From contig QYRS01000019.1 of NCBI GenBank assembly GCA_006503535.1, forward strand, positions 1-64,000: a stretch of 64,000 nt of DNA, written 5' to 3'. Below, piece by piece: positions 1,996 to 52,930 of the stretch. Source of the stretch: Arthrinium phaeospermum (lineage: Eukaryota; Ascomycota; Sordariomycetes; Amphisphaeriales; Apiosporaceae). The notes beneath the pieces were generated by a model, which saw nothing but the letters and a program-made list of their open reading frames with translations, searched no databases and was not told the DNA's origin. Every line of letters starts with the position of its first letter. Position 1 is the first letter of the stretch. Position numbers and translations under genes: made by a program.

Positions 1996-4030
1996 TTATG
2001 ATTCCCGTGCAACTTCCACTACACGCTAAACCCCCACACTATAACTAAAATACCAACTGTATAGCGCCCAGGTACTCTATTATTACGATCTCTTCTCAGA
2101 CATAAGGGAAAGAAGTTAAAAATTCATTTAACCTATCATATCCCGCAAAGTAGGACGATTTTAAAAAAGCCTTGTGTAATTTTTTATCAATTAGGGGTTT
2201 CGACTGTACATTAAGCAGCATTTCAGCCACCCACCAGTGATCCAGTCTGTAGCGATTATATAATTAACCGACGGTCTATAAACAGATGGCGAATGTTTAA
2301 CCGTTTTCACTAGTGTAACCAGGTAGGAATATACCTAATACCTTTATTTGGTATTCTACTTATTATAATTTCTGAAGTTCAGAAACTAAAGTATATTCTA
2401 ATTATATATTGCATATACTGTAAAAGTAGGATTTTAATTATTATATTTTTTTAATATAATAACCAATTTGGTCCTTGTATTGTGTTGAACCGTATTTCGA
2501 CTTAACACTAATCAGAATCGCGCATACGAAGATCCTACTATAACATCTAAACCATATCGTTTACTTAATTATAATAAGAGAGCAAACTTATTGCGCTAAC
2601 TCCTTTCAGCATGTGACGAGTGGTTAGTACCAATCCGAAGTTATATTCACCGTGACATGGTGATTCACGATTACTAGCAATTCTTATTCATACAGCCGAA
2701 TTTCAGACTGTAATCCATTTCCGAATTCTATCCTATTTTTTGAGATTAGCTTAAACTCGCATTTTTGCTTCTCTTTGTGTAGGAATATGTGGCACGTCTA
2801 TAGCCCACAATATTCAGGCCATGATGACTTGTCTTATTCCCTTTTGTTCTTACCATTGTAGAGGGGCAGAAAATGCTCTATTAAATTATTGTAAATAAAG
2901 CCGGGGTATTCGTTAATTTCACGGTCGGAACCGCAGTTTCATAACATTAACTGAAAACAGCCGTGCAACACTTGTATTGTTAAAATTAGAAGATTAAACT
3001 ACTAACTTTAATAACATTCAAATTGTGGTAAGGTTTTTCGTGGATCACCGAATTAAATAACATACTTCACTGCTGGGGTCAGAAACGGTCTAGTGATTTC
3101 AGTTCCTGCGTTGCCACACTACTCTTGAGGTGAAATGCTTACACTTTCATTTATAAACCAAGTAATATTACCTAATTTATGGCATTCATCATTCTCTGCA
3201 AAGACTACTGGGGTACCTAATCCTGTTCGTTCTCTGTGCCTTCGTCCCTGAACGTCAGTTTTTACATAAGAGGTTGCCTTCGCCTTTACCAGTCCCTACA
3301 GTATCAACAAATTTCATCTCTACACCATAAGTACGACTCTCCTCATATAAAACTCTAGTAGAGATGTATCCTGTTAGGACATTTACTACCGTCTACGTAC
3401 CCTTTAAACCTATTTAAGATGAATAACACTAGCCTCTTACGTATTACCGCGACTGCTGGCACGTAATTAGTCAAGGCATAAATGCATATCGTCATAATCA
3501 ATATGCAGTTAGAACTTTATTCGACAAACCGATTTAGAGTAAGAACATACTTTTATATCAGTAATCTTCTCCGTTCTCCGAAGTTGCCAGTTCAGCCGTT
3601 CGGCCATTGACCAAGATTCCTCACTGCTGTACTCGCTTGCCTTGGGATTTTTTCGTCCCCAATGTGGTCGATCAACTTTTCAGCTTCGACTACGAGAATT
3701 TAGGCTTGTTAAGTAGTAACCTTAACAACAACCTATCTCGGCGACCACCCTATGTCCTCTTAAAGCGGCATAATTACCCTTTTTTGATTATGGGGGATTT
3801 TTCCCCCTCTTTAAGGTCGGCTCGGGGTCTATACTCACCTGTACACCACTTTTAATAAAATAGAAGCTTACGCCTTATTAAATTAAACGTTCGATTAGCA
3901 TGTGTCAAGCATTTCGACAGCGTTCAATCAGAGCCATCACCAAACTCACCCTTATATACACACATTTATAGTGTGGATGGTTAGATCCATCACTATAAAA
4001 TTTTGGTTATTTTGATATTAACACTAGACT
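1996..4030 (-). rRNA. rns: small subunit ribosomal RNA
   Basis: Small-subunit rRNA of the mitochondrial ribosome. The 5' region near 3945-3880 contains the conserved words TTGGTGATGGCTC and GAACGCTGTCGAAATGC. The 530-loop equivalent lies near 3450, and the decoding-region equivalents lie at about 2600-2700 (minus strand TACTAACCACTCGTC and CGTGAATCACCATG). Helix 45 is split off: the helix 44/45 junction word AAGTCGAAATACGG lies at about 2488-2502, and GTAGTGGAAGTTGCACGGG at 2004-2022, with a group I intron between. The 5' boundary is estimated. A second helix 45 copy is at 750-789. Confidence 0.88.
2023..2480 (-). mobile_element. group I intron in rns, no ORF
   Basis: Between the two helix 44/45 halves of rns the minus strand carries a group I core of the type repeated in cox1, cob and nad5 of this window: AGACCGTCGG followed by CTACAGACTGGATCACTGG and TGAAATGCTGC (about 2190-2285). 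No endonuclease ORF fits. The intron ends are approximate. Confidence 0.7.
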
Positions 4031-4067: not shown

Positions 4068-4112
4068 ATTTATTTTGGGATAAAATCAAGCTATTTCTGC
4101 TAAATATCTCTT
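4068..4112. repeat. left flanking direct repeat of nuclear-type insert
   Basis: A 26-base exact core (4073-4098) is shared with 9594-9619, within a longer imperfect match 4068-4112 versus 9580-9634. The copy lies just upstream of the rns 5' end. The two copies bracket the foreign segment like a target duplication or the two ends of a recombination event. Confidence 0.75.
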
Positions 4113-4263
4113 TCGTATATTCTTCCCGCCCTAAGGCGGGAAGAATAAAGGAGGGCAATAAATTTTAGTATTGATATCAGAGATAAGAAGGGGGAAGAAG
4201 GGGGTGTGCAGGGTTGCTTTATAAATCTTAGATTTATATCAGCAGAAGGACTAATTTATGCAA

Positions 4264-4877
4264 CTATGTAAAACGAATAACAGACTTAAGATCAAACTTC
4301 GATTCCAGAATAAACTCTTCCTTGCCCTCCTCCTTCAAAACCCATTCCTCTGATTCTTTCCAAGACTTCATACTCAAAGAAGTGGCCACAAATGCACAAT
4401 CTTTGACCAAGGTCTTTATGTAACGCTCGACCTGTTGCTCAATATAGATTTCAAGTAAGCTAGGATTCATCTTCCTTATATTGTTTTTCGATTCCAACAA
4501 TTGATGGTCGAAACCAGAAGGAGACAAAACACGTCGACGTTTGGAGTCTGAAAGTCTCAGACTCTCAGAGTCAACAGAAGCCTTTCCTACTAAAGATCAG
4601 TAAAACCTTAAAAATAACCATGTTACTTACTCTTCAATTTGGTTCCGAGAGAACACGACGAAGTATCTGTATGGTTCAGGTTCGAACCTGCATTAAAAGT
4701 TGAATATGAAACAGCCAGACCGTGCTGTAAATTCAAAGAGGGACTTTGAGGACTTGATGCAGAAAGAGTACCCTCAGATTCAACTCTTGAGGTGTTGACA
4801 TTGTGAAGTTGTTTACTTGAGGGCACAAAACAATTGTAGCTGGATGAAGAATGAAAAGAAGGCAAAAAAGATTCCAT
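4264..4877 (-). CDS. hypothetical nuclear-type gene with one spliceosomal intron
   Basis: The predicted start is ATG at 4877. Exon 1 runs to 4631, the intron is 4590-4630 (41 nt, GTAAGT donor, ACTGATC branch-like site, TTTAG acceptor), and exon 2 runs from 4589 to the stop at 4264. Splicing joins two open frames across a phase 1 junction and removes an in-frame stop, giving about 190 residues. The N-terminal half is Ser/Asn-rich. A basic KRRR patch follows the junction and could be a nuclear localisation signal. The C-terminal half is acidic and possibly helical. I recognise no family. A second gene at 5909-6579 has a similar position and layout. If mitochondrial, the intron could not be spliced by the usual machinery, so the gene would be silent. 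Confidence 0.55.
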
Positions 4878-5600
4878 TGTGAAACAAAATATAGAACAGA
4901 TGCAGATGTAATGTGATAATGTTTAGGCTGAATCGATCTGATCTTTTTCTGGGTAGAAATAAAAGAACAAAAGTGAAGGGGAGGATCCTTTAAATAAACT
5001 TTTTTAGCTATACATCATCCTTCTGAAAGAGACAGACTCCAATTTTAGATTACGCAATCTTAATACGTAAGTTTCGCCACTACTCCGTAATCAAGTTATC
5101 TAATCGACATGTACCCGCGGCTAGGTAATACGAGGCCACATCGTGCGATATTACGTAGTTGGCCACTAAGTCCCTGTATCTATTCACCAATCACATACAA
5201 TCTTCTTATCTTCTCCGACCCTTCAACCGTAACCCCCCCACGATCGACGAATCACTTGATTAAGATCCCCACTTTAAACCAAGTTTGTGCCTCACCAGAT
5301 TACGTCACATCATCATGAAGATCCCTGAATAATACAAGATCACATGCTGAGATGAACACGCCACCCTTAGTCTGGATCACACAATCTCAAGATTTGACCA
5401 ATTAAATTAATATTTTTTCTTACTTCTCTAAGGACTCGTAATCCTTTTGATCTTGTGATTGACATTGTCCATATATAGTTTAAGATCTCTGTTAACCTCC
5501 TCGGATCGAGATGCATGCCAAGGCAATGCATCTCGATTGCCACCGTGTCATGAGTCATGGTGGGTGATGATGGAATCATCTAGCCTCGGGCTGGCCTTAG
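4878..5600. other. no gene seen in nuclear-type segment
   Basis: Upstream region of the minus-strand gene ending at 4264, of mixed composition. Short opposing frames at 5109-5579 overlap each other on both strands without family signals and are not called. Two perfect-looking GATGCATGCCAAGGC-type inverted words near 5505-5540 are the only structure I see. Confidence 0.4.
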
Positions 5601-5604
5601 GGCG

Positions 5605-5772
5605 GCTAGAACCTAATAAAAACAGGTTTTCCTTATCTATGATGTAATAAACAGATCATCTAGACATAACTAGTGGGCTGATCATGAATCTAGATCCAAG
5701 GAAAACAAGTTTTCCTTATCTATGATCTACGCCAAGATTCCTTATCCTTGGTATCATCCCATAAAAATATCT
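5605..5772. repeat. long direct repeat, copy 1
   Basis: About 160 bases that recur at 7008-7168 with very few differences. The shared words include aggttttccttatctatgat, gggctgatcatgaatc and tccttatccttggtatcatc. A partial third copy is at about 6815-6885. The repeats lie 3' of the gene ending at 5909 and before the aminotransferase promoter, which suggests a local duplication within the nuclear segment. Confidence 0.85.
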
Positions 5773-5779
5773 CTCTTGC

Positions 5780-5855
5780 CCCCATATCACTCATATCTAA
5801 CAGTTAGTCGTGATAAGGGGATTCATGATATCAGAGATAAGAGGGGACCAGAAAA
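5780..5855. repeat. mitochondrial-type dispersed repeat inside nuclear segment
   Basis: Contains ccccatatcactcatat, gtgataaggggattc and gatatcagagataag, words found in the mitochondrial intergenic repeats at 4150-4200 and elsewhere. Its presence here argues that the foreign segment has been exposed to mitochondrial repeat spread. Confidence 0.6.
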
Positions 5856-5908
5856 GATAAAGGAACAAAAGTGAGTTTTAAGTAAATATGCCACACTAAA
5901 TTATGAAA

Positions 5909-6579
5909 CTATGCATAACTACGAAAGTTAAATCTCAAACCAAACTGTACAACTCTACTTTCCTCTGCGATTGACGTAAAGTCCGACTCCTTGGTCTCAA
6001 CCCATTCTACATATTTCCCATCCAACTCCACACCGAAGTCTTCCTCCCCTTCCAAGTGCTGTCGAACTACCTCCTTCAGCTTTTCTAGGAGGGCTCTCGA
6101 ATATGGCCGTCTCTTCAGAACGAAATCGGATGTGTCCCCTCCACGACGCAACTCAGAAGGAATGAGACCAAATTTCTTGCAATACTTTTTAGCCCATTTC
6201 TCACTGCGACGAGTCGACCCGTAAAACCAATCATGGCCATCGTGGCGAAGACGAGACTTCGCCACTAGAAAGAGGTCAGTATAAAAAAAAATACTTATAG
6301 AAACAAGGTATAACTTACCGTTCAGGTTCAACTTTTTCATCGTATCCAGGCTCTTTTCTGAACCTGATCCGTCTAAAAGATTAAAAGGAGAAGTAGGCGG
6401 TGTAGAAGCAAACGAGGTACCCTCCTCGGTGAGGTTGTTGATTGAGTATCTTCGGGAATTGTAATAATGGACGGCTGAATAGAAGGTGGTATAAGAGAAG
6501 AAGAGTTCTCAGGAAAAGGAGTATCCCTTACCTGAGAACTCGGAGGTAGACCATCCATAGGCAAATTTTCAAACATCAT
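5909..6579 (-). CDS. hypothetical nuclear-type gene with spliceosomal intron(s)
   Basis: A clear downstream part runs 6340-5909 on the minus strand, with a 54-nt intron at 6265-6318 (GTAAGT donor, TACTGAC branch site, TTTCTAG acceptor). The intron length is a multiple of three and has no stop, so retention would add 18 residues. The remaining protein is charged, with a central segment SEKWAKKYCKKFGLIP and the end RFNFRSYA. An upstream exon probably starts at ATG 6579 (residues MMFENLPMDGLPPSSQ) and joins through an unresolved intron whose acceptor may be TTTTAG at 6373. No family recognised. It resembles the gene at 4264-4877 in layout and weakly in its C-terminal acidic EWV/ES pattern, so the two may be distant paralogues. 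Confidence 0.5.
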
Positions 6580-7007
6580 ACTAGAAGTAAGAGATGATGT
6601 AAAGTAAGTGTCATGGGTAGATGAGGTACAGATGTCAAAAGATCATAAGAAAAAAAATAGATGGTCAAACTTAAATATACTTTAATGTGAGAGATCCTTA
6701 TCTATTACAAAATAACATTCCATAATCAACCCCGCAGTGCAACCAATATAAGGTGACCTTGTGACCAAGAAATAAGACGGATCAGCACAACATGTTGTGC
6801 TGATCATGGACCTAGAACCCCAAAAAACAAGTTTTCCTTATCTATGATGTAATAAACAGATCACCTGGACAAACATGGGCTGATCTTAAGTAATCTAGCC
6901 TCCGGCTGGTCTTAGGCCGGCTGGGCAAGCCAGCCACCCCGCGGCTAGTTTGGGGAAACTTGTTTTAGTGCCAAAGGCAAAAAACCAGTTTGAAAACTAG
7001 TGCCTAA

Positions 7008-7168
7008 TAAAAACAGGTTTTCCTTATCTATGATGTAATAAACGATCATCTAGACATAACTAGTGGGCTGATCATGAATCTAGATCCAAGGAAAACAAGT
7101 TTTCCTTATCTATGATCTACGCCAAGATTCCTTATCCTTGGTATCATCCAATAAAAATATCTCCTTGC
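7008..7168. repeat. long direct repeat, copy 2
   Basis: Near-identical to 5605-5772. It lies about 550 bases upstream of the plus-strand aminotransferase start. Confidence 0.85.
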
Positions 7169-7179
7169 TCACTATCCTA

Positions 7180-7714
7180 GTTTGAAGAATCAAACCTGTT
7201 TGATTCAAAAACAAGTTTGAATAAACTAGCACACCCCCGCCACTTTGGCTTAGAAATCATACGATTAGAAATCATACGATTAGAAATCAAATGCTTAGAA
7301 ATCAAATGCTTAGAAATCAAAGATGAATTTTACCCCTCCTCTTCCCCCCCTCGGGGATCTGGAGCAGGCGGCACCTAAAGCCGAAATATCTATCAATATA
7401 AAAATAGTCACCTCCCCCTTACATTCTGTTTTTTTTATCCTAAACTCATCTTCATCAATCTAAACCCCCTACACTATCACAATCTATCAATACACCACCA
7501 CCACCAACCTCAACCTCCGCACTATCACAATCTAACACGACACCACCAATCTCGTGCCGGCACCCCTCACTGTCACAATCAATTACCTCACCATCAATCA
7601 TAACCTATCTATACTTTGATTCTCATCAAAGTATACCCTAAGCCAACTCTTTGACTATTTTATTGGTCACGACCTTCAACAGACATATTTCTTGTCACCC
7701 CATCATTCTTCACT
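7180..7714 (+). promoter_or_regulatory. nuclear-style promoter and 5' leader of aminotransferase
   Basis: The stretch ends in a long pyrimidine-rich and ACC-rich leader (7400-7714, words such as aatctatcaatacaccacc), typical of ascomycete nuclear genes and unlike any mitochondrial leader in the window. The start context is CACTATGGCC, with A at -3 relative to the ATG. A tandem repeat of 'tagaaatcatacgat/tagaaatcaaatgct' lies at 7250-7325. An expression start cannot be placed from sequence. Confidence 0.45.
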
Positions 7715-9091
7715 ATGGCCTCTTCAACTGGAATCGCTCAAACTTCTTCGGAGTACACCTTTCTCCGTGATCTTCGCAAGGTGTACCCTCAGATCCTGAG
7801 CGGTAAGGGCAATTACCTTACTACAAAGGATGGCCGCGAGGTGTTTGACGCATGCTCAGGAGCTGCTGTCTCCTGTCTTGGCTACGCCAACCAAAGAGTC
7901 ATCGGAGCAATCAATAAACAGTTAGAATCCGGAACCCCCTACCTGGCATCCTCATTTTGGGCCAACGATGTCGTCGAAGACTTGTCCAAGGAGCTCATCC
8001 AGGGTACGAACGACAAAATGGCTAGAGTCTACTTGACAGGCTCTGGTTCTGAGGCGATGGAGGCAGCTATCAAGCTGTCTCGTCAATACTTTTACGAACA
8101 AGACCCGGAAACTCCCCGTGTCAACTTCATTTCTCGAGAAAGATCTTATCACGGCAATACCCTTGGAGCTTTGGCTGTCTCAGGCTTTCCTGCCCGGAAA
8201 GCACCTTACATTCCACTCCTCATGAAGAATGTTCACCACGTTTCTTCATGTAACCCCTACCGTCAGCGAGGAGTGGGTGAAACGGATGCTGCCTTCGTTC
8301 GCCGGAAGGCCGACGAACTCGAGGAAAAATTCCAGGAATTGGGTCCTAAAACCGTGGTCGCCTTCATCGCCGAACCAGTCGTCGGTGCCGCCCTAGGGTG
8401 TGTACCGTGTGTGCCTGGTTATCTCCAGGCAATGCAAAACGTTTGCCATAAACATGGCGCACTGTTCATCTTGGATGAAGTTATGTGCGGCATGGGTCGT
8501 ACTGGTACCTTACATGCATGGCAGGGAGAAGATGTTGTACCTGACCTCCAAACCATGGCCAAAGGACTTGGCGGCGGGTATCAATCGATCGCAGCCTTAA
8601 TGATATCGAAGAAGGTTGTAGAGTTGATTAGGACCAAGAGTGGTCAATTCATCCATGGACTGACCTACCAGGCAATGCCTGTACAGGCAGCAGCTGCCTT
8701 GGAGGTCCAGCGGGTCCTCCGGGAGGACAACTTGTTGGAGAATGTCTCCAAACAGGGTGCCTATTTGGGAGAACGTTTGAAAGCTCTCCTCTCCAACCAC
8801 CCGAATGTCGGAGACATTCGAGGAAAGGGTCTTTTCTGGGGTCTGGAGTTTGTGAAAGACAAAGAGACTAAAGAGTCTTTCCGCCCTGAAGATGCCGTTG
8901 CCCAGAAAATCATGGAGTTGGCTATTTCAGCTCCATACAACATGACAGTCTACCCTGGAACTGGCACCGAGGACGGTCATCGTGGAGACCATATCATCCT
9001 GGCACCTTCATACATCATCACCAAAAAGGATGTGGACCACATCGTCAAGACAGTGCTAGCTGTCGTGAGGGAAATTTTACCCGTGGATTAG
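7715..9091 (+). CDS. class III (PLP-dependent) aminotransferase, nuclear-type copy
   Basis: An intact 458-residue class III aminotransferase with no intron. These enzymes move an amino group from an omega- or alpha-amino donor to a keto acid using pyridoxal phosphate; the substrate here cannot be told. Visible features are the cofactor phosphate motif around GSGSEAME (109-116), SYHG (144-147), the conserved acidic residue in ILDEV (Asp254) and the Schiff-base lysine in MAKGLGGGY (Lys283). The length is normal for the family. There is no N-terminal targeting peptide. Codons are GC-rich at third positions and all tryptophans are TGG, so the protein reads the same in nuclear and mould mitochondrial codes. 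A diverged AT-rich homologue lies at 10257-11705 on the other strand. The start is the first ATG, in a good context. Confidence 0.93.
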   Translation: MASSTGIAQTSSEYTFLRDLRKVYPQILSGKGNYLTTKDGREVFDACSGAAVSCLGYANQRVIGAINKQLESGTPYLASSFWANDVVEDLSKELIQGTNDKMARVYLTGSGSEAMEAAIKLSRQYFYEQDPETPRVNFISRERSYHGNTLGALAVSGFPARKAPYIPLLMKNVHHVSSCNPYRQRGVGETDAAFVRRKADELEEKFQELGPKTVVAFIAEPVVGAALGCVPCVPGYLQAMQNVCHKHGALFILDEVMCGMGRTGTLHAWQGEDVVPDLQTMAKGLGGGYQSIAALMISKKVVELIRTKSGQFIHGLTYQAMPVQAAAALEVQRVLREDNLLENVSKQGAYLGERLKALLSNHPNVGDIRGKGLFWGLEFVKDKETKESFRPEDAVAQKIMELAISAPYNMTVYPGTGTEDGHRGDHIILAPSYIITKKDVDHIVKTVLAVVREILPVD

Positions 9092-9575
9092 CTAGGTGTA
9101 CTGCCCTAGTCTAAGGGGAATAGGGTTCCTATTTCTCAAAGAGGATGAAGAGGGGAGATTAGAACACCCCTACTTGAAACCTCAAGTGCTTTACATTCAT
9201 TTTCTTGTCGAAAAAGGGTGGTACATGTATAGGGTCTTATTGTCGAAAAAGTGGTACATATATAGGGTCTTGTTTATTTTTTTTAGCCCTTCTTTGTTTT
9301 TTCTAATGAAAAAACAAAGTTTAAGACGTACTGGGCTGCTTTACAAATCTTCGATTTATATCAACAGAAAAAGAGTGGTACACCTATGGGATATTATTAG
9401 CGGCTCGTACACTCTTTCAAGATAAAACCAAATTAAATTACATTCTTTACTAAGTCTGAAATAAACTTATGCATTCTTAATTTTTTCTTTCATGAGCCTC
9501 CGGCTACAGAATGCATTATTTAGTTTATTAAGGGATTAAAACCCAGAGTATAGTTTTAAGTTAATATAATTTAGT
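9092..9575. other. 3' flank of aminotransferase with hairpin repeats
   Basis: No convincing gene. Tandem copies of 'gtcgaaaaagtggtaca(t)atatagggtct' lie at 9205-9270. A hairpin of the AGCCC...GGGCT family is at 9286-9338, followed by a stretch (9340-9368) like the words near 4212-4245 and 39850-39890. A 109-codon frame at 9096-9425 is built from these repeats and is not called. Confidence 0.55.
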
Positions 9576-9579
9576 TCGG

Positions 9580-9634
9580 GGATTTTTTTTTATTTTTGGG
9601 ATAAAATCAAGCTATTTCTTGCTAAATATATCTC
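9580..9634. repeat. right flanking direct repeat of nuclear-type insert
   Basis: Partner of 4068-4112 with an exact 26-base core at 9594-9619. It marks the return to AT-rich mitochondrial sequence. Confidence 0.75.
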
Positions 9635-9961
9635 TCTAAATTATAGTTTTATGTAGGCTTTGCAATGCTCGCTTTTAAATTATATATTAGATGATAATAT
9701 TATCATTTAATTAATTATTCTATTTTCTATTTAAAACCTAAACCTTTTACTTGAAGTAATTATATATACAGACATATTGTTTACTATAACTTTCCTTAAA
9801 TTCTTTTAAATTTAGTTTATTTTTATCTCCAAAATCTAGCAGAGGCGACTAGTCCCGAGGACTAGCCTCTCGGTCCCCCCCCCCCCTTTATCTCTTTATA
9901 ATGCCGTAGGCAAAGTAATGATATCCCTGATATCAGAGGAAGAGGCTAGATAAGTGATATA
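9635..9961. other. AT-rich intergenic with GC cluster
   Basis: No gene seen. It holds a GC-rich palindrome (tagtcccgaggacta, near 9849-9863) followed by a C10 run near 9880-9890, and dispersed 'tgatatc' repeats before the tRNA. Confidence 0.5.
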
Positions 9962-10031
9962 AGATTATGGAGGAATCGAACCTCAAACTTAAGATCTGCA
10001 ATCAAAGTGTAGACCATCTACAAGCATAATC
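9962..10031 (-). tRNA. trnC: tRNA-Cys (GCA), copy A
   Basis: The minus strand has acceptor GATTATG paired with CATAATC, a D arm TGTA/TACA, anticodon GCA in loop TTGCAGA, and T arm GAGG-TTCGATT-CCTC. The anticodon stem has only three good pairs. One of four tRNA-Cys-like copies in the window (others at 12534, 40046 and 40692). It lies 3' of the mitochondrial-type aminotransferase, so it may serve as a processing signal for that transcript. Confidence 0.75.
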
Positions 10032-10256
10032 TTTATAAATATTTTTGCTTTGGCGCGCCAAAGCAAAAATATTTATAAATAAATATCTAAAAACTAGACA
10101 CAACAGATATCATAAAAATTACTAGCTGATGACCTCAGTGTTATTGTATTATCTAAATATTTTTATAATATTTACTAATAACTTTCATTAATAAAGATCC
10201 AAGACGTATTGGATATAACGTCAGGATATACATGTTTTCTATACTATTACATTACA
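10032..10256 (-). repeat. copied atp6 3' tail downstream of aminotransferase
   Basis: The minus strand contains the last codons and 3' flank of atp6 in degraded form (GGATCTTTATTAATGAAAG, then sequence matching 12750-12870). It also has a perfect GC hairpin ttggcgcgccaa beside the tRNA. The aminotransferase stop lies exactly at the edge of this copied block. Confidence 0.8.
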
Positions 10257-11705
10257 TTATATTCTTTTAATGCTAACTTCAGTAAAAACTATGTTAATTA
10301 CTTTAAATAGCACCTCCACAATATAATCCACCTCCTTTTTATTGATGATAAATGGAGGAGCAATAATAATACGATCTATGTGAAAAAGATAACCAGCAGG
10401 CCCCCCATGGTAGACAGCTAGGTTATATTCGGGCGAGAAAGCTAAGTCTACGATTCTTCTAGCTATATCTAGGTTAGGATTAAAGGGCTTTTTAGTTTTT
10501 TTATCTGTTACAAATTCTATGCCTCATAAAAGACCGCATCCTCTAATTTCACCCACATTAGGGTGATCAGATAAAACAGCTCTTAAACGTTTTTCCAAAT
10601 ATAGCCCTTGTTTAGCTACATTAGCTAGTAAATTTTTATCATGGATAACTTTTTGTACTGCTAGAGCACCTACAACAGTAGATGGCATCCCTTCATAAGT
10701 TTGTCCGTGGACAAACTCCCCGTTACCTCGATATATAACATTAACAACTTTTTCAGATGCTAATACAGCTGATATAGGAACATATCCGCCTCCAAGTCCC
10801 TTCGCATTAGTTTGAATATCAGGGATGATATTTTCCTGTTGTCAAGCATGCAAAGTTCCAGTTCTACCTATACCGCATAAAATCTCATCGAAAATTAAAA
10901 GTACACCATACTTAACACATACTTCCTGCATAGCCTTTAAATAGCCAGGTACAGAAGGCACACCTCCTAATGCTGCACCCACCACAGGCTCAAGAATAAA
11001 GGCCATAATTGTGTCTGCCCCTATCTCTAGAAACTTGGCTTCTAATTCTGCTTTTTTTCTAGCTACGAAAGCAGCATCTGATTCACCTAATAATATTTGA
11101 CGATAGGAATAACATGCGGAAACGTAGTGGATGTTATCTAATTTTAATATGGATTGATAATAATTTTTCCTAGCATTATACCCTGATAGAGCCAAAGCAT
11201 TTAAAGTTGCTCCATGATAAGAACCTGCTCTAGCCACAATATTGGTACGCTTATCATCGTTATTTTCACGATGATAAGTAAGGGCCAACTTAATTGCAGC
11301 TTCTATAGACTCTGAGCCGGAATTAAGCAAGTATACTCTGAACATTTTATTTTTTGTCCCGAGTATAAGAACTTCGCATAAATTATCGACCGCTTCACTA
11401 TTCCATATCGATGATAGGTAAGTTATACCTGTCTTGTTCTGCTTAGTTATCGCATTAATAACTCTTTTATTACCATGACCTATGCAAGATACCATAGCAC
11501 CAGATGATGCATCTAGAATATTACGGCCATCCTTTGTAATAATGTAAGAACCTCTACCTTTAATTGCATAAGGTCTATTATCATTAAATGGAGCCATTAG
11601 AGAAAAAGAACTGTAACACCTGCTAATATTTTTAATATGTACTCCAGCTCGGATGAAACCTTTTGTGGCTAAACATGTACCTATAATTCTTGCTGCTTGT
11701 ATCAT
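10257..11705 (-). CDS. class III aminotransferase, mitochondrially adapted, with presequence
   Basis: An intact 482-residue class III aminotransferase, if TGA is tryptophan. The two TGA codons are residues 288 (HAW) and 394 (GLLWG), each aligned with a TGG-encoded tryptophan in the 7715-9091 homologue. Visible motifs are LNSGSESIEA, SYHGATLNA, IFDEI (Asp273) and NAKGLGGGY with cofactor lysine about 302. Codons are AT-rich like the neighbouring mitochondrial genes. Residues 1-33 are basic, lack acidic residues and end RCYSS, as in an import presequence with a processing-peptidase arginine. The homologue lacks this part. I infer a once nuclear-encoded, mitochondrially imported enzyme now encoded in mtDNA. 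The start is ATG at 11705 and the stop TAA at 10257. A copied atp6 tail and tRNA-Cys follow directly. Confidence 0.92.
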
Positions 11706-12363
11706 TTTTTTTTAATGTAAAAATATCACTTTATTTTAATATATACTATCACTAGAACATTTACTTTTGTTGCCCTTATCCTTTTATCCCACCCGTGCTT
11801 TAACTATTCATAATTATATAAATAGGCTTCTAAGGGTGGCTCCCTAATTTTGGAAGGATTCCTTAACTACGTGAAAGATATTTGTTAGGAGTATATTTTT
11901 ACTTCAAAATTTAGGGCAATAATTTATTTTTCTTTTCCCTAATCCCAAACCCCTAACCCTTTCAGGGTGTGGGGTGTGGGATGTGGGAATGAGATAAATT
12001 ATTTCTCTTTATATTTTAAAGTTTTCGATAAAATGTTAAAGTAAATAAAAAGGGATAAAGGGATAAAGGCACTATATACAGTAAATTTAGGTTAAAAACC
12101 ACGAATTTTATATTGGGTATCTCCTCTATAACTTAGTTGTATGAGGGTAGAGTTAAGCTATAAGTAGAACTTAACAATATAGGAATATAATTTTGAATTT
12201 TCCTCATATAACTCGCTCCTCATTCCCTTTATCACTAGCCCGGAACCCCTCCCTAATCCGGAGGATACTAATTAAGAGGGCTAGTGATATGAGGGCAAGA
12301 GTGATATGAGGACAAGAGGGATACATTAGATCTGGGGATAGAAGGGCAAACCTATTCTTTTAT
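11706..12363. other. intergenic with GC-rich repeats
   Basis: No gene seen. A block at 11938-11990 ('aacccctaaccctttcaggg' then 'tgtggggtgtggg') recurs almost unchanged at 22185-22235. Dispersed 'tttatcactag/ctagtgatatgaggg' repeats lie at 12205-12330. Confidence 0.6.
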
Positions 12364-12532
12364 TTAGGATGTTTTACTTATTAGTTCTGTAACATTAGAT
12401 GATTTTACGTTTAATAGAGTTATCACTTGTCTACTATCAATTTTTAACGCACTTTTACCTAATTCAAATACAAATCCAAGAGTAATAATACCTATAAATA
12501 ATAATGCTACGATTAATCCATAAATATTCAGA
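12364..12532 (-). pseudogene. nad3 3' fragment
   Basis: The minus strand encodes the C-terminus of NADH dehydrogenase subunit 3: NIYGLIVALLFIGIITLG followed by FVFELGKSALKIDSRQ, then a novel tail ending ELISKTS. The N-terminal two-thirds of nad3 are absent and no start is present. It directly follows the broken tRNA-Cys, so it is a captured gene end like the atp6 tails in this region. The intact nad3 presumably lies elsewhere in the genome. Confidence 0.85.
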
Positions 12533-12533
12533 A

Positions 12534-12631
12534 GATTATGGAGGAATAGAACCTCAAACTTAAGATCTGCAATAAAAGCATATCAATCTTAAAATATGCA
12601 ATCAAAGTATAGACCATCTACAGTCATAATC
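12534..12631 (-). pseudogene. tRNA-Cys copy B, disrupted
   Basis: It shares both ends of the tRNA-Cys copies (GATTATG acceptor and GGTTC-ATTCC region), but about 28 extra bases repeating the anticodon-arm words lie in the middle and the T arm has a change (aatagaacc). It should not fold into a normal tRNA. Confidence 0.8.
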
Positions 12632-12639
12632 TTTATAAA

Positions 12640-12868
12640 TAATTTTGCTTTCTTCCCCTTCATCACCCTGGATCCCAGATCCCCTTGGGGGAAGAAAAGG
12701 GAAGAGGGGGGATCCGGATCCGCAGCCAAGCAAAAATATTTATAAATAAAAATATCTAAAAACTAGACACAGCAGGTATCATAAAAATTACTAGCTGATG
12801 GCCTCAGTGTTATTGTATTATTATAAGTATTATCTAAATATTTATATAATATTTACTAATAACTTTCA
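12640..12868. repeat. atp6 3' flank with GC-rich palindrome
   Basis: 3' untranslated region of the main atp6, ending in tRNA-Cys copy B. A GC-rich palindromic insert lies at 12647-12726 (atccccttgggggaag, gggatccggatccg). The same position in the other copies holds shorter hairpins (ggcgcgcc near 10060, ggaattcc near 40130). Confidence 0.6.
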
Positions 12869-15549
12869 TTAATGAAGATCTAATCCGTCTTTGATATATC
12901 CGGATGATAAAACTACAAAAACTTGAGCTTGTATAAATGCAATTCCTAATTCTAAACCTGAGAAAGCTATAATGAAAGATAATGGTACTAATCCCAAGAA
13001 GAAGAATATTATACCACTTGTCATTATATTGTATGTGAAACCAGCTAATATGTTTAATAACATATGACCTGATAAACGTCCACAAATTCATCCTTTTGTT
13101 AATAAATCTCCGAAAACTTAAACTAATTTAAACAAATACACACCTTTAAAGGGATTAGTTCTATTTTCTTTCAAATATAAAGATATACTAGCTTGGCGAT
13201 AGCCTAATGCTCTAGCTGCAGCACCTATAGAAGGATATATTGTAACTTCTTTAGTTTCTACACTAGTAACCTCCACCTTTTTAGATGTTTTTTGAACTTT
13301 TATGGCTGCACTAAACGTAGTTTGTGTTGAGCCTTCTCTAGATAAAACTACACTGCTTTCAGGTTGCACCTTTCCTATATTAGGTTTTTCAACCTGGCCT
13401 TCTGTATCAAGTAATTTAAAAGTATATTTACCTAAAACAGGTTTATCTTGATTTAAGTAAATATAATGTTCGATATATCTTTTATCAATACCTAATGCAC
13501 GGGCAGCTGCTTTTATAGCGTGGTATGTAGTAGAAGTATTTGTTTCTATGTCAGTTACCTCAACTTTAATTTTCATAGGATGAGATGCTGACATTTTAGC
13601 TAAAGTTTCTGGAGATCTTTTAAGAGCAGCAGCGCGCATATTCTCTACAGTAGCTTCTGAATGTTTTCATCCAGACCCTCGAGAAGGGCTTCCAGGTGTT
13701 TTTAATATATTATACTCTGGAGAGTATACTTCAAAAAAATGTTTTTCTCTAGACATAAGATTATCTATGTCACAAATATCTAGAATAGTAAGACTAAAGT
13801 TATGGTAGCCGTATTTTAATAATGCAACATTAATAGGCATACTATTTTCATTTAGTAATCTATTTACATTATAATACTCTAATAGTCTACGGTTTAAATC
13901 CATAGAACTACCTACGTACTTTTTACTATTCAATTTATTAGTTCACATATAAATACCTGATCTACCTTTAATATGGTTAAGAATGTCAAGTTTATCTTTG
14001 TCTGCATCCAGAAAAACAACTAAATCTGAAGAACTTGTATAGGAAATATCTTTACATGCTGCACATGAAGCTGAAAACGCTCTAACGCCCAATTTATTGT
14101 AACTAAATTTGTATAAATTTATAGTTACCCTTGGTTGATATAATAAACTACGTGGTGAGATAATCTCTCCAACTTTGTTTATATTAATACTATTGGGTAA
14201 AACTGAATTAGTATTTAAATATTTTACACTAGATAATATAAGTCGTTCACAACTTTATCCTTTCTTTAAAGGTATTTATATTGGCATAAGCCCAATAAAT
14301 AAATCCTTTCTTTAAAGACGAGTCGCACATGTTTGCGTTTAAATTTTACTTTTCTTTATTATTTCTAAGCAGCTGTAAGCTCCTAAAAAAAAATAAATTG
14401 TAAAAAAAGATATTAATCTTTATACATAATATTATGTATTTACCCATTTCTCTATTTATGTTGTGATACCGCTACGTATAAATAGAACGTAACCGTAAAA
14501 AAACAAAGTAAGAGAAATATAATTAAGGATAGGCTATTGTGGTATCTTTAATCTTGAATTACTTAAATTCTTCCAAGAACCGGGTTTCCCGGCGACTAGA
14601 GTATACCTTATAGTTATTAATATGTATTCTATTCCTCTCGCTAAATAAGTTATCAAACGATAAAAATAGCCTAATCATAAGTAACTAAAGAACCGTCTAC
14701 TCGTTGCTCTTTTACAGTTATTGTTTTGTATATCTACCTATCGAAGCAATTATGCTAGTTTAGATTCCTCGTAATAAGTAGACACATATTACTGATTTAG
14801 ATCCGCGATCACCCATTCCTATTACTAGAATCTCTAATGATATTACTATACCCTGAGTCATTAATCAGGCCAGATAAAAAGTTTCCGTATTATCTTTAGT
14901 TATTAGAGCTTTAGGGCTTCCCCGGAATTTGGCTCTTGAACACAATAAGAATAAGTCACCTAACCTCATCTATTTATGTTAGCTGCTAATCTTAAACCTA
15001 AAGAAATATTTCTAGCTAAGTAACTGATGAATTCTATTAACACTAATAAAGGTAATAGTGCTAAAGGACAACCTGCAGGTACTAAAAGAGAAAAGAATAC
15101 TAAACCATGTTTTTGGAATCCTAATATAGTTGCTCCTAAAACTATAGTAAAACTTAAAGAGAAAGTTAATACAAAGTGGCTTGTTGAAGCGAAACTATAC
15201 GGAACCATTCCTACTAAATTATTTATTAAAATAAATATAAATAAAGCGTATATAAATGGGAAGTACATTTGCCCGTTTTAGGGTTTATTTGATTTGTTAC
15301 TATGCTATGTATAGTTGCGTATAAAGATTCTTGGCTAATAGATCAGTTATTTCCTACTAATCTGTTGTAATTTGTACTTAAAAGATTAAGAGCTAATATA
15401 AATAAACCTCCTAACATTAAGAATAATCCTATGTTAGTTATTGAGATATGTAAGTTCCCTAATATAGGTGCGTCTAAACTTAATAAATCTCTAATTTCAA
15501 ACTGACTTAAAGGACTAATTATTTCTCTATTTAAATTAAATTTTTCCAT
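12869..15549 (-). CDS. atp6: ATP synthase subunit a
   Basis: Membrane subunit a of the F1Fo ATP synthase, carrying the proton half-channels. Exon 1 is 14976-15549 and exon 2 is 12869-13076; they join as AN-I-LSGHML. Conserved parts are FPFIYALFIFIL, the RNISLGLRLAAN segment with the essential arginine (LGLRLAAN), and GLELGIAFIQAQVF. A TGA tryptophan follows VGNN. One base is missing near 15272: TGQMYF is expected, but the frame breaks just before Gln-Met. The protein is otherwise normal, so a sequencing indel is possible. The group I intron has a GIY-YIG ORF. Copies of its 3' end occur at 10032-10256 and 40345-40536. Confidence 0.93.
13077..14975 (-). mobile_element. group I intron atp6-i1
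   Basis: The 5' exon ends AACAT and the intron ends in G before TTTATCAGG. The core lies at the 5' side (14650-14960), with GATCGCGGATCTAAATC and GAGCAACGAGTAGACGG on the minus strand, the same core type as nad4-i1 and nad1-i2. The ORF occupies the 3' half. Confidence 0.85.
13118..14250 (-). CDS. GIY-YIG homing endonuclease in atp6-i1
   Basis: Site-specific endonuclease that spreads its intron. With TGA as Trp the frame is open from about 14250 to the stop at 13118. The GIY half is GRSGIYMWTNKLNSKKYVGS (near 13960-13900), the catalytic region continues RRLLEYYNVNRLL, and the acidic residue lies in SREKHFFEVYSPEYN. Two C-terminal NUMOD-type DNA-binding modules follow (YHAIKAAARALGIDKRYIEH and YPSIGAAARALGYRQASIS). 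No ATG starts the frame; an alternative start or processing of a fusion is likely. Confidence 0.85.
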
Positions 15550-40115: not shown

Positions 40116-40344
40116 TTTATAAATATTTTGGAATTCCAAAATATTTATAATGGTATTACATCACTACGAAATATTGGCCACAAAATAAAATCCTTTATTT
40201 TGTATATATGCTCGGTTAGTTTTTTTTATAAGGCGGAACTAGAGACAGTAGGTATCATAAAATTACTAGTCTATCACCTCAAGATTATTGTATTATTATA
40301 AGTATTATCTAAATATTTATTATAATATTTACTAATAACTTTCA
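40116..40344 (-). repeat. atp6 3' flank copy
   Basis: It matches the 3' flank of atp6 (12770-12868) at 40240-40344. A perfect hairpin built on ggaattcc follows the tRNA, replacing the GC cluster of the other copies. Confidence 0.75.
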
Positions 40345-40536
40345 TTAATAAAGATCTAATCCGTCTTGGATATAACCAGAGGATAAAACTACAAAAACTT
40401 GAGCTTGTATAAATGCAATTCCTAATTCTAAACCTGAGAAAGCTATAATAAATGACAAAGGTACTAATCCTAAGAACAAGAAGATTATACTATTCGAATA
40501 GTTCTCAAAATACATTGAAAGCAAGTAATTCCTCAT
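40345..40536 (-). pseudogene. duplicated atp6 C-terminal fragment
   Basis: Encodes the atp6 C-terminus from about SIIFLFLGLVPLSFI through GLELGIAFIQAQVF to GYIQDGLDLY. It is nearly identical to the main gene but ends LDLY rather than LDLH and is preceded by unrelated codons (MRNYLLSMYFENYSN). No upstream atp6 exon is present. It is an extra 3' end, as expected if a mobile element once replaced or copied the atp6 tail. Confidence 0.88.
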
Positions 40537-52230: not shown

Positions 52231-52930
52231 TTATTTTTTTTGTGAAGGACCGGCATTCAAATCTTCACCTGATCTCTTGCTACCCGAAATATTGCTTGTA
52301 TTATAGCTAGATTTACCTTTAGTTAAATCAATTTTTTCTTTAACCTCTTTATTTATAAATCTTTCTATATCCACCTTTTGTTCCAGTAAAGATTCTTTAT
52401 CTTCGAGTTGTTGTGGAGTTAAATTTGATTGATCCTCAAGAGCACTAAGTTGGTTTTTAATTAACTTTAATTGCTCCTTTTGGTATTCAATCATTCTATT
52501 TTCCACAGCTATCTTTCTATTTTGAAAAGAATCTTTTCAATTTTCATCATTGGATGCAAATTGAAAAGGTTCTACTCCAAATATATCAAGTAAATAAGGT
52601 AAGTTTTTAATAACTAGATATAGGAATAGAAGTAAATAAACTACTTTTTTTAATTTTTCTACATCAAACATGTACAAAGTGCAACTTGTGATAATACCAG
52701 TACTTAATCATGCGATATTTTTACTTAATCTAATTGATCCTTTTGTTATTAGATTTATAAGCCCAGGAAAACCTAAACTGCTAGTTAACATAACAGATTT
52801 CGGAGATAACTCATTAACTCTTGCTTTGTTCATAGCAGATTTAATATTTTGTATTTGGTTCAAACCATCTAAAGTAGAATCTACTTTAAACCCCCCTCCT
52901 CGAACTGTAATTACGAGCACTATTGTGTAT
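52231..52930 (-). CDS. chimeric ORF: LAGLIDADG remnant, nad5-like piece, coiled coil
   Basis: Unrecognised as a whole. The N-terminus (STLDGLNQIQNIKSAMNKA) matches the inter-domain region of LAGLIDADG enzymes such as 18600-18650. Next, KGSIRLSKNIAWLSTGIIT resembles nad5 [19 protein letters not shown] encoded just upstream (about 53090-53180). A hydrophobic segment (VVYLLLFLYLVIKNLPYLL) follows, then a long charged coiled coil (NRMIEYQKEQLKLIKNQLSA, ESLLEQKVDIERFINKEVK) and a basic tail GPSQKK. Two TGA tryptophans are read through. It seems to be assembled from pieces of its neighbours. Confidence 0.55.

What the first reader, a model, noticed from the sequence alone, without database searches (positions are those of the whole stretch)
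10257..11705. Aminotransferase gene in mtDNA that uses TGA as Trp yet keeps an import presequence
Sequence shows a complete class III aminotransferase with all cofactor motifs, AT-rich codons and two TGA codons placed exactly where the homologue at 7715 has TGG Trp. It also has a basic N-terminal extension with no acidic residues ending RCYSS. Known: matrix enzymes imported from the cytosol carry such presequences, while mtDNA-encoded proteins do not. Inference: a nuclear gene for an imported enzyme moved into mtDNA and adapted to its code, the reverse of the usual organelle-to-nucleus direction. I do not recall aminotransferases among standard fungal mitochondrial genes.
Basis: partly seen in the sequence, partly recalled or inferred. 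Interest (0 to 1): 0.95.

Follow-up and report, generated by a model that had tools for sequence, protein, structure and literature searches.

The report
Mitochondrial aminotransferase wearing an atp9 start
A fungal mitochondrial DNA carries an intact aminotransferase gene whose supposed import signal is really the copied front end, upstream region included, of the mitochondrial gene atp9, so the enzyme looks set up to be made inside the mitochondrion rather than imported.

Summary
The ORF is real but on the MINUS strand (11705 to 10257): 482 codons, code 4, TGA at Trp288 and Trp394, class-III aminotransferase with its active-site residues. The central claim fails: the "import presequence" is the first ~24 codons of atp9. 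Window 11640-12528 is a second copy (94.4% over 907 columns) of the nad3 3' end, nad3-atp9 spacer and atp9 start found at 79016-78114 of the same contig. The cassette lies between the atp6 3' end and a decayed copy of it. All 32 nuclear-labelled relatives have acidic residues in their first 30; this leader has none. Of 72 database relatives with N-terminal extensions, 8 carry atp9, atp6, nad3, nad4L or nad5 pieces in frame at E≤1e-4; shuffled sets average 0.05. Mitochondrial aminotransferase genes are already published (PMC6140425), as are atp9 copies with foreign extensions (PMC4162613). The combination, a resident enzyme gene repeatedly borrowing front ends of core genes, I found in no listed paper. 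Nuclear origin is plausible (branch support 80-86). Expression and activity are untested.

The parts
10257..11705 (-). Class-III aminotransferase ORF, 482 aa, read with code 4
   Evidence: (PF00202, 269 bits)
11634..11705 (-).
11706..12363 (-). Copied nad3-atp9 spacer: atp9 upstream region, presumed leader
   Evidence: copy of the region upstream of 78179
12364..12528 (-). Copied 3' end of nad3 (last ~54 codons and stop)
   Evidence: fuller nad3 near 79.2-78.8 kb
11598..11633 (-). Linker codons 25-36 (KNISRCYSSFSL), before Met37, which aligns with the N-terminus of P0006; holds the R-x-Y-S motif
10842..10844 (-). TGA codon read as Trp288
10524..10526 (-). TGA codon read as Trp394
10800..10802 (-). 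Lys302 codon, expected PLP lysine (role recalled); K in 20 of 20 rows
12869..13069 (-). 3' coding end of resident atp6 (identity recalled), directly upstream of the cassette
12532..12898 (-). atp6 last codons plus 3' flank, repeat copy A
9961..10228 (-). Degenerate copy B of the atp6 last codons and 3' flank, in matching pieces, just downstream of the aminotransferase stop
7715..9091 (+). Comparator: second, GC-rich class-III aminotransferase of another clade, opposite strand

Best explanation
A mitochondrially resident, probably working PLP-dependent class-III aminotransferase gene that has taken over the 5' end of atp9. A duplicated segment (nad3 3' end, nad3-atp9 spacer, first ~24 atp9 codons) lies in frame before the enzyme core, in the spacer between atp6 and rns. 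Shown: intact ORF, conserved catalytic residues, the duplication, the in-frame junction, TGA at conserved Trp sites, similar joins in relatives. Inferred: transcription and translation use the copied atp9 signals; mitoribosomes make the protein in the matrix, reading UGA as Trp; the unfolded ~36-41-residue leader is a remnant, not an import signal, perhaps trimmed at RCYSS; the family entered mtDNA from the nucleus long before this species.
For: Duplication 11640-12528 vs 78114-79016, 94.4% over 907 columns. A separate split atp9 with both exons on the same contig. Leader match E 1.2e-6; 0 of 1000 shuffles at 0.01. P0001 and 8 of 72 relatives with over 25 aa before the core carry atp9, atp6, nad3, nad4L or nad5 pieces at E<=1e-4, against 0.05 per shuffled set; P0154 and P0157 are further atp9 joins. 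P0001 keeps 83 of 84 columns invariant in the other rows; S131, Y163, E239, D273, K302, T336 are invariant in 20 of 20; differences from P0002 are 5 of 91 invariant, 11 of 97 well-conserved and 77 of 265 variable columns. The core is modelled with fair confidence (mean pLDDT 78.6), residues 1-41 under 50; the best PDB matches are class-III transaminases. In both trees P0001 groups with P0002, P0003, P0004 and P0006.
Against: No RNA or protein data. Upstream signals are assumed, not mapped. Leader homology stops at about codon 24; the next 12 codons have no shown origin (no better than shuffles). C19 is an incomplete mitogenome: no LSU rRNA at Rfam thresholds and no COX3 match. The nucleus-to-mtDNA step rests on branches of support 80-86, with Diaporthe and Hypoxylon rows that I labelled nuclear lying inside the mtDNA-rich part. 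mtDNA location of P0002-P0004 is inferred from their joins, P0004's from a weak match.
Confidence: 0.85

Rival explanations
1. One reading: a nuclear gene for an imported matrix enzyme moved into mtDNA and kept its presequence.
For: The leader is basic, lacks acidic residues and ends RCYSS; nuclear homologues exist; relatives P0062 and P0137, of unproven location, have presequence-like N-termini.
Against: The leader and ~820 bp before it are a copy of the nad3-atp9 region of the same contig. 32 of 32 nuclear-labelled database rows have D/E in the first 30 residues (no targeting predictor was run). The nearest relative P0002 has an atp6 end in that place and P0003 an atp9.
Confidence: 0.03
2. 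A silent relic: an ORF carried along by duplication, not expressed, awaiting decay.
For: [quoted passage not shown] borealis and atp9 copies called common in Helotiales (PMC4162613 passages). GC3 of 0.238 is above the 0.09-0.16 of nad4, nad4L, nad5 and cob stretches. No expression data.
Against: 482 codons open in an AT-rich genome; 83 of 84 otherwise invariant columns kept; divergence from P0002 concentrated at variable columns. The neighbouring atp6-end copy has decayed.
Confidence: 0.15
3. Variant of the best reading: the atp9 join is ancestral to the family (atp9, a cox1 3' end, aminotransferase) and was later moved or copied to the atp6-rns spacer, rather than captured anew here.
For: P0003, P0081 and P0154, distant in the tree, show atp9, then a cox1-like C-terminus, then aminotransferase (in P0154 the cox1 piece is 15 residues, E 0.001). 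A cox1 C-terminus relic ending QSSF follows the intact atp9 at 76406.
Against: No aminotransferase relic behind that atp9 (hits elsewhere only at E 0.12 or worse). The DNA between leader and core matches the 76.4 kb relic no better than shuffles (score 21 vs mean 20.7). P0002 has atp6 instead of atp9.
Confidence: 0.4
4. Assembly chimera or nuclear copy of mtDNA.
For: Repeats of about 900 bp can misjoin; the contig lacks rnl and cox3 and ends inside a third atp9-start copy.
Against: The two copies differ at 24 of 823 aligned upstream sites plus indels, so they are separate loci. TGA would stop the gene in the nucleus. Independent database records show atp9-aminotransferase joins.
Confidence: 0.04

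Closest known systems
Aminotransferase class-III-like gene in Annulohypoxylon stygium mtDNA (PMC6140425, passages read); also Pestalotiopsis fici (PMC11277600, passage)
   Same: Class-III aminotransferase gene in ascomycete mtDNA. A. stygium also has an AAT_I fragment between atp6 and rns, the same spacer as here.
   Different: There the gene lies between atp9 and cox2 and has two short introns. The passages seen describe no atp9-derived 5' end.
Sclerotinia borealis ORF 0044: full-size atp9 copy without stop, continuing into 213 unrelated residues (PMC4162613, passages)
   Same: Duplicated atp9 running in frame into other sequence, plus a truncated atp6 copy; atp9 duplication and truncation called common in Helotiales.
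   Different: The added sequence is called unrelated, not an enzyme. Here only ~24 codons of atp9 remain, before a complete aminotransferase.
Mobile ORFs (mORFs) with C-terminal duplications in Glomus and Allomyces (PMC3630166, passages)
   Same: Insert next to an atp6 3' end with a second copy of that end downstream; overlapping set of host genes (atp6, atp9, nad3).
   Different: mORFs encode a homing endonuclease and supply a new C-terminus. Here the insert holds an aminotransferase, no other ORF of 120 aa or more, and the second atp6 end is decayed.
Nuclear fungal class-III aminotransferases, e.g. P0009 Amorphotheca resinae (57%), P0018 Leptodontidium (55%)
   Same: Same family and active-site columns.
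   Different: On megabase contigs, standard code, acidic residues in the first 30, no mtDNA-gene piece.

Membership tests
Class-III aminotransferase (PF00202) | Full-length domain over the curated cut-off | tested here: met
   269.2 bits vs cut-off 30.5, residues 48-469
Class-III aminotransferase (PF00202) | PLP lysine, aspartate and phosphate-site residues kept | tested here: met
   K302, D273, Y163, S131, E239, T336 invariant in 20 of 20 rows; their roles recalled
Class-III aminotransferase (PF00202) | Transaminase activity | not testable with these tools
   needs expression and assay
Named NCBIfam family PRK07483 | Score over the curated cut-off | tested here: not met
   464.9 vs 485 bits, best of the 25 shown of 69; ORF 7715 (538.6) and P0009 (561.1) pass
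Imported matrix protein with presequence | Nuclear gene with its own N-terminal presequence | tested here: not met
   gene in mtDNA with TGA codons; leader is an atp9 copy
mtDNA-resident aminotransferase (A. stygium type) | Aminotransferase ORF within mtDNA among core genes | tested here: met
   between atp6 and rns on C19
mtDNA-resident aminotransferase (A. stygium type) | Groups with named mtDNA members | tested here: inconclusive
   Nearest rows P0002-P0004 are unnamed; P0087/P0088 (named mitochondrion) and P0014 (Juglanconis, mtDNA origin recalled) are farther; the A. stygium protein was not identified in my set
mORF with C-terminal duplication | Encoded homing endonuclease | tested here: not met
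   no other ORF of 120 aa or more between 9100 and 13100
mORF with C-terminal duplication | Duplicated host-gene 3' end flanking the insert | tested here: met
   atp6 3' end copies A and B; B degenerate and in pieces

The most novel reading that the evidence does not exclude
In ascomycete mtDNA a class-III aminotransferase of nuclear descent is a long-term, wandering resident that persists by repeatedly joining the front ends of core genes (atp9 most often, also atp6, nad3, nad4L, nad5), borrowing their start codons and expression signals; the borrowed piece may then be trimmed by a matrix peptidase at an R-x-Y-S site like those in other in-frame ORFs of the same mtDNA. This is recurrent leader capture, with processing, inside an organelle.
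Probability: 0.5. Interest if true: 0.68.

Novelty: new variant of a known kind. Interest (0 to 1): 0.5.

Why it matters
Genes normally leave mtDNA for the nucleus and gain presequences. Here a metabolic enzyme gene appears to have gone the other way, and its anatomy suggests how an incoming gene could become expressible: by taking the start of a resident gene. The joins (atp9, atp6, nad3, nad4L, nad5) are natural test cases for which organelle leaders can drive a foreign gene. It also warns that basic N-termini on mtDNA ORFs can be pieces of local genes, and that a database entry named as a core subunit (P0095, 'NADH dehydrogenase subunit 3', 590 aa) can hide an enzyme.

Tried and rejected
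Retained presequence: rejected. Tandem duplication of the window's two aminotransferases: rejected; 53% identical, different clades. Recent copy of the host's own nuclear gene: not supported; best nuclear locus C9 is 48% (P0001) or 52% (ORF 7715) identical and in another clade, and DNA 4100-9600 has one nuclear match, 76 bp at 80%. A cox1 C-terminal relic inside P0001: not shown. An aminotransferase relic behind the intact atp9: none. Pfam on relatives: of P0002, P0003, P0004, P0081 only P0003 gave an atp9 hit, below cut-off (13.7 bits), and P0002 no atp6 hit, so those assignments rest on tblastn. Hits at E≤0.01 that I dropped before counting: P0004 (atp9, 0.004; the shuffle control gives 2.15 per set at 0.01), P0027 (0.004, judged chance), P0030 and P0062 (match ORF 7715). 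R-x-Y-S enrichment was looked for after seeing RCYSS; frames that share descent inflate it, and in aminotransferase extensions it is weak (3 of 73; 34 of 1000 shuffles reach it; the looser R-x-[YF]-[ST] shows none, 628 of 1000). The organism was not identified: the last protein search went to atp9 joins. Protein searches list only the best 120 of 7123 and 8000 hits, so counts of joins are for that sample. Literature searches: (none found); I saw no described atp9-aminotransferase join in listings or passages, but only open papers are held, and Wai et al. 2019 was seen only as a citation in PMC7902536.

Full report
OBSERVATION. Read with code 4, window 10257-11705 is an intact 482-codon ORF on the minus strand; the plus strand is full of stops. 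It holds a full class-III aminotransferase domain (PF00202, 269 bits, residues 48-469). TGA stands at Trp288 and Trp394, TGG at Trp101. In an alignment of 20 rows including P0001, column 288 is Trp in 19 and column 394 in 16; S131, Y163, E239, D273, K302 and T336 are invariant in 20 (their catalytic roles are recalled). The AlphaFold model has mean pLDDT 78.6, with residues 1-41 under 50 and short low stretches at 168-170 and 334-336; the best PDB matches are class-III transaminases.

SETTING. The window is part of contig C19 (96,493 bp) with rns at 2461-3955 and group I and II introns, atp9 and cox2 pieces. I recognised cob, cox1, nad4 and the atp6 end by motifs recalled from memory; nad3, nad4L and nad5 through relatives that Pfam names. 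Rfam finds no LSU rRNA at its thresholds and COX3 has no match in the whole 48.4-Mb assembly, so the mitogenome is incomplete. The contig ends 88 bp upstream of a third copy of the atp9 start.

THE 'PRESEQUENCE' IS atp9. The intact atp9 begins at 78179 (minus strand) with MIQAARIIGTGLATTGLIGAGVGIG, and its second exon (FALMMAFLLLYVA, stop) is at 76615. The aminotransferase begins MIQAARIIGTCLATKGFIRAGVHIK. The similarity is not limited to the peptide: window 11640-12528 matches 78114-79016 over 907 columns at 94.4%. That segment holds the last ~54 codons of nad3, the nad3-atp9 spacer and the start of atp9. The copies differ at 24 of 823 aligned upstream sites and 6 of 71 in the first coding bases, with 15 gap events. 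Shuffling the 24 residues gave 0 of 1000 hits at E 0.01, against 1.2e-6 for the real ones. So the basic leader is a changed atp9 start: K15, R19 and H23 are substitutions relative to atp9. Of 32 database rows that I labelled nuclear, 32 have D or E in the first 30 residues. Against this, P0062 and P0137, whose genomic location I do not know, have presequence-like N-termini; neither is in P0001's clade.

FLANKS. Just before the copied nad3 end lies the resident atp6 3' end (stop at 12869). Just after the aminotransferase stop lies a degenerate copy of the last atp6 codons and 3' flank, matching in pieces of 86-98% (10217-9961 vs 12898-12532); a third atp6-end copy is at 40.2-40.5 kb. The cassette therefore sits between two atp6 ends. 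This resembles mORF insertions (PMC3630166 passages), but there is no other ORF of 120 aa or more between 9100 and 13100, so it is not filed as one.

RELATIVES. One search lists the best 120 of 7123 hits; the top three are P0002 (80%), P0003 (63%) and P0004 (71%). I compared the N-terminal extensions of 73 proteins (P0001 and 72 others, out of 150 in hand) with over 25 residues before the core against this contig. P0001 and 8 others carry a core mtDNA-gene piece at E≤1e-4: P0002 (atp6 end, 1e-21, then a cox1-like end, 1e-6), P0003 and P0081 (atp9, then cox1 end), P0022 (nad4L), P0031 (nad5), P0095, P0099 and P0102 (nad3). Twenty shuffled sets gave 0.05 on average at that level and 2.15 at 0.01; P0004 (atp9, 0.004) is therefore not counted. 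Pfam confirmed nad4L, nad5 and nad3 but not atp9 or atp6. A search with the atp9 part of P0003 found 20 proteins with atp9-like starts; 3 carry PF00202 (P0003, P0154, P0157), P0154 with a 15-residue cox1-like piece (E 0.001). I had no DNA for these, so mtDNA location is inferred from the joins or from names (P0087 and P0088 are named mitochondrion).

TREES. With 132 rows and with 62 rows under a mixture model, P0001 groups with P0002 (99*, 98*), then P0003 and P0004 (97*, 98*), then P0006 (100*, 100*). ORF 7715 is elsewhere with P0058 (97%), P0057 and P0054. Rooted on nuclear-labelled rows, the 15 mtDNA-labelled rows, four nuclear-labelled Diaporthe and Hypoxylon rows and 24 unlabelled rows fall in one part (support 80, then 86), beside a nuclear-labelled group; the label needs two changes, and one origin is not ruled out. 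Labels are mine, from contig length, record names and joins. A nuclear origin is thus likely but neither dated nor counted. P0102 and P0154 are long branches and unsure.

SELECTION. P0001 keeps 83 of 84 columns that the other rows hold invariant. Against P0002 it differs at 5 of 91 invariant, 11 of 97 well-conserved and 77 of 265 variable columns, classed without either. Codon-position GC is 0.476/0.375/0.238, against GC3 of 0.09-0.16 in nad4, nad4L, nad5 and cob stretches and 0.54 in ORF 7715 (two further core rows of that script were out of frame and are not used). This fits purifying constraint and partial AT adaptation.

POSSIBLE CUT SITE. RCYSS at residues 29-33 has the form R-x-Y-S, which recalls the R-3 type site of the matrix processing peptidase (recalled). 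In 71 minus-strand frames of 120 aa or more (aminotransferase left out) R-x-Y-S occurs 12 times, against a shuffle mean of 3.3 and maximum of 11 (0 of 300 reach it); in 17 plus-strand frames 0 times. Of 13 sites including P0001's, 4 are followed within 50 residues by a LAGLIDADG-like motif. This was looked for after the fact, related endonucleases share descent, and in aminotransferase extensions the motif is only weakly enriched (3 of 73; 34 of 1000 shuffles). It is a lead: mtDNA-encoded joins may be trimmed after translation. The 8 papers listed of 76 hold no mention of mitochondrial processing peptidase.

READING. Best reading: a resident mitochondrial enzyme gene under a copied atp9 start, made in the matrix, with the leader a remnant. 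The duplication, junction, ORF, TGA placement and residue conservation are shown; expression through atp9 signals, translation, trimming and activity are inferred. The substrate is unknown: the closest NCBIfam model, PRK07483, is missed (464.9 vs 485), and the stretch before the C-terminal APP motif differs from nuclear relatives (HIDRIIIAPPF vs GDHVILAPSY), which might mean another substrate.

KNOWN AND NEW. Known: aminotransferase genes in ascomycete mtDNA (PMC6140425, PMC11277600, PMC7902536, passages only), atp9 and atp6 truncated copies in S. borealis and other Helotiales (PMC4162613 passages), and mORF gene hybrids (PMC3630166 passages). PMC5626475, PMC8393795 and PMC12112736 were also seen as passages only. 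Not seen in listings or passages of my searches: the atp9-aminotransferase join or its recurrence over several core genes. Only open-licence papers are held, so this is a weak negative.

Noticed in passing
window 7715-9091, + strand: Second class-III aminotransferase, opposite strand to the core genes, GC3 0.54, 3 TGG and 0 TGA, no close nuclear copy; looks like a much less adapted, separate acquisition.
   Followed up: partly
minus-strand frames across contig C19, e.g. window 62651, 58370, 46397, 29767, 11621: R-x-Y-S motif over-represented (12 sites in 71 frames vs 3.3 in shuffles), in several cases shortly before an endonuclease domain; possible trimming site of in-frame mtDNA ORFs.
   Followed up: partly
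window 5606-5779 and 6997-7168: Direct repeats, 97% identical, in the GC-rich block beside the second aminotransferase.
   Followed up: no
contig C19 from 96405 downwards (L036): Third atp9 start: about 51 atp9 codons run in frame into a membrane-like tail, ORF about 150 aa; the tail resembles the linker of nad3-joined P0099 (E 4.6e-4).
   Followed up: partly
contig C19 76406, minus strand (L034): Copy of the cox1 C-terminus behind the intact atp9; a similar piece links atp9 or atp6 to the aminotransferase in P0002, P0003, P0081 and P0154.
   Followed up: partly
window 40237-40490, minus strand: Further copy of the atp6 3' end.
   Followed up: no
window 52588-52749, minus strand: Second, partial copy of a nad5-like C-terminal stretch (48% to P0031, E 2e-6).
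   Followed up: no
P0095 (database protein, 590 aa): Recorded as NADH dehydrogenase subunit 3 of Dematophora necatrix, but it is nad3 continuous with a full aminotransferase.
   Followed up: partly
whole contig C19: No LSU rRNA or cox3 found, so the held mitogenome is incomplete.
   Followed up: partly
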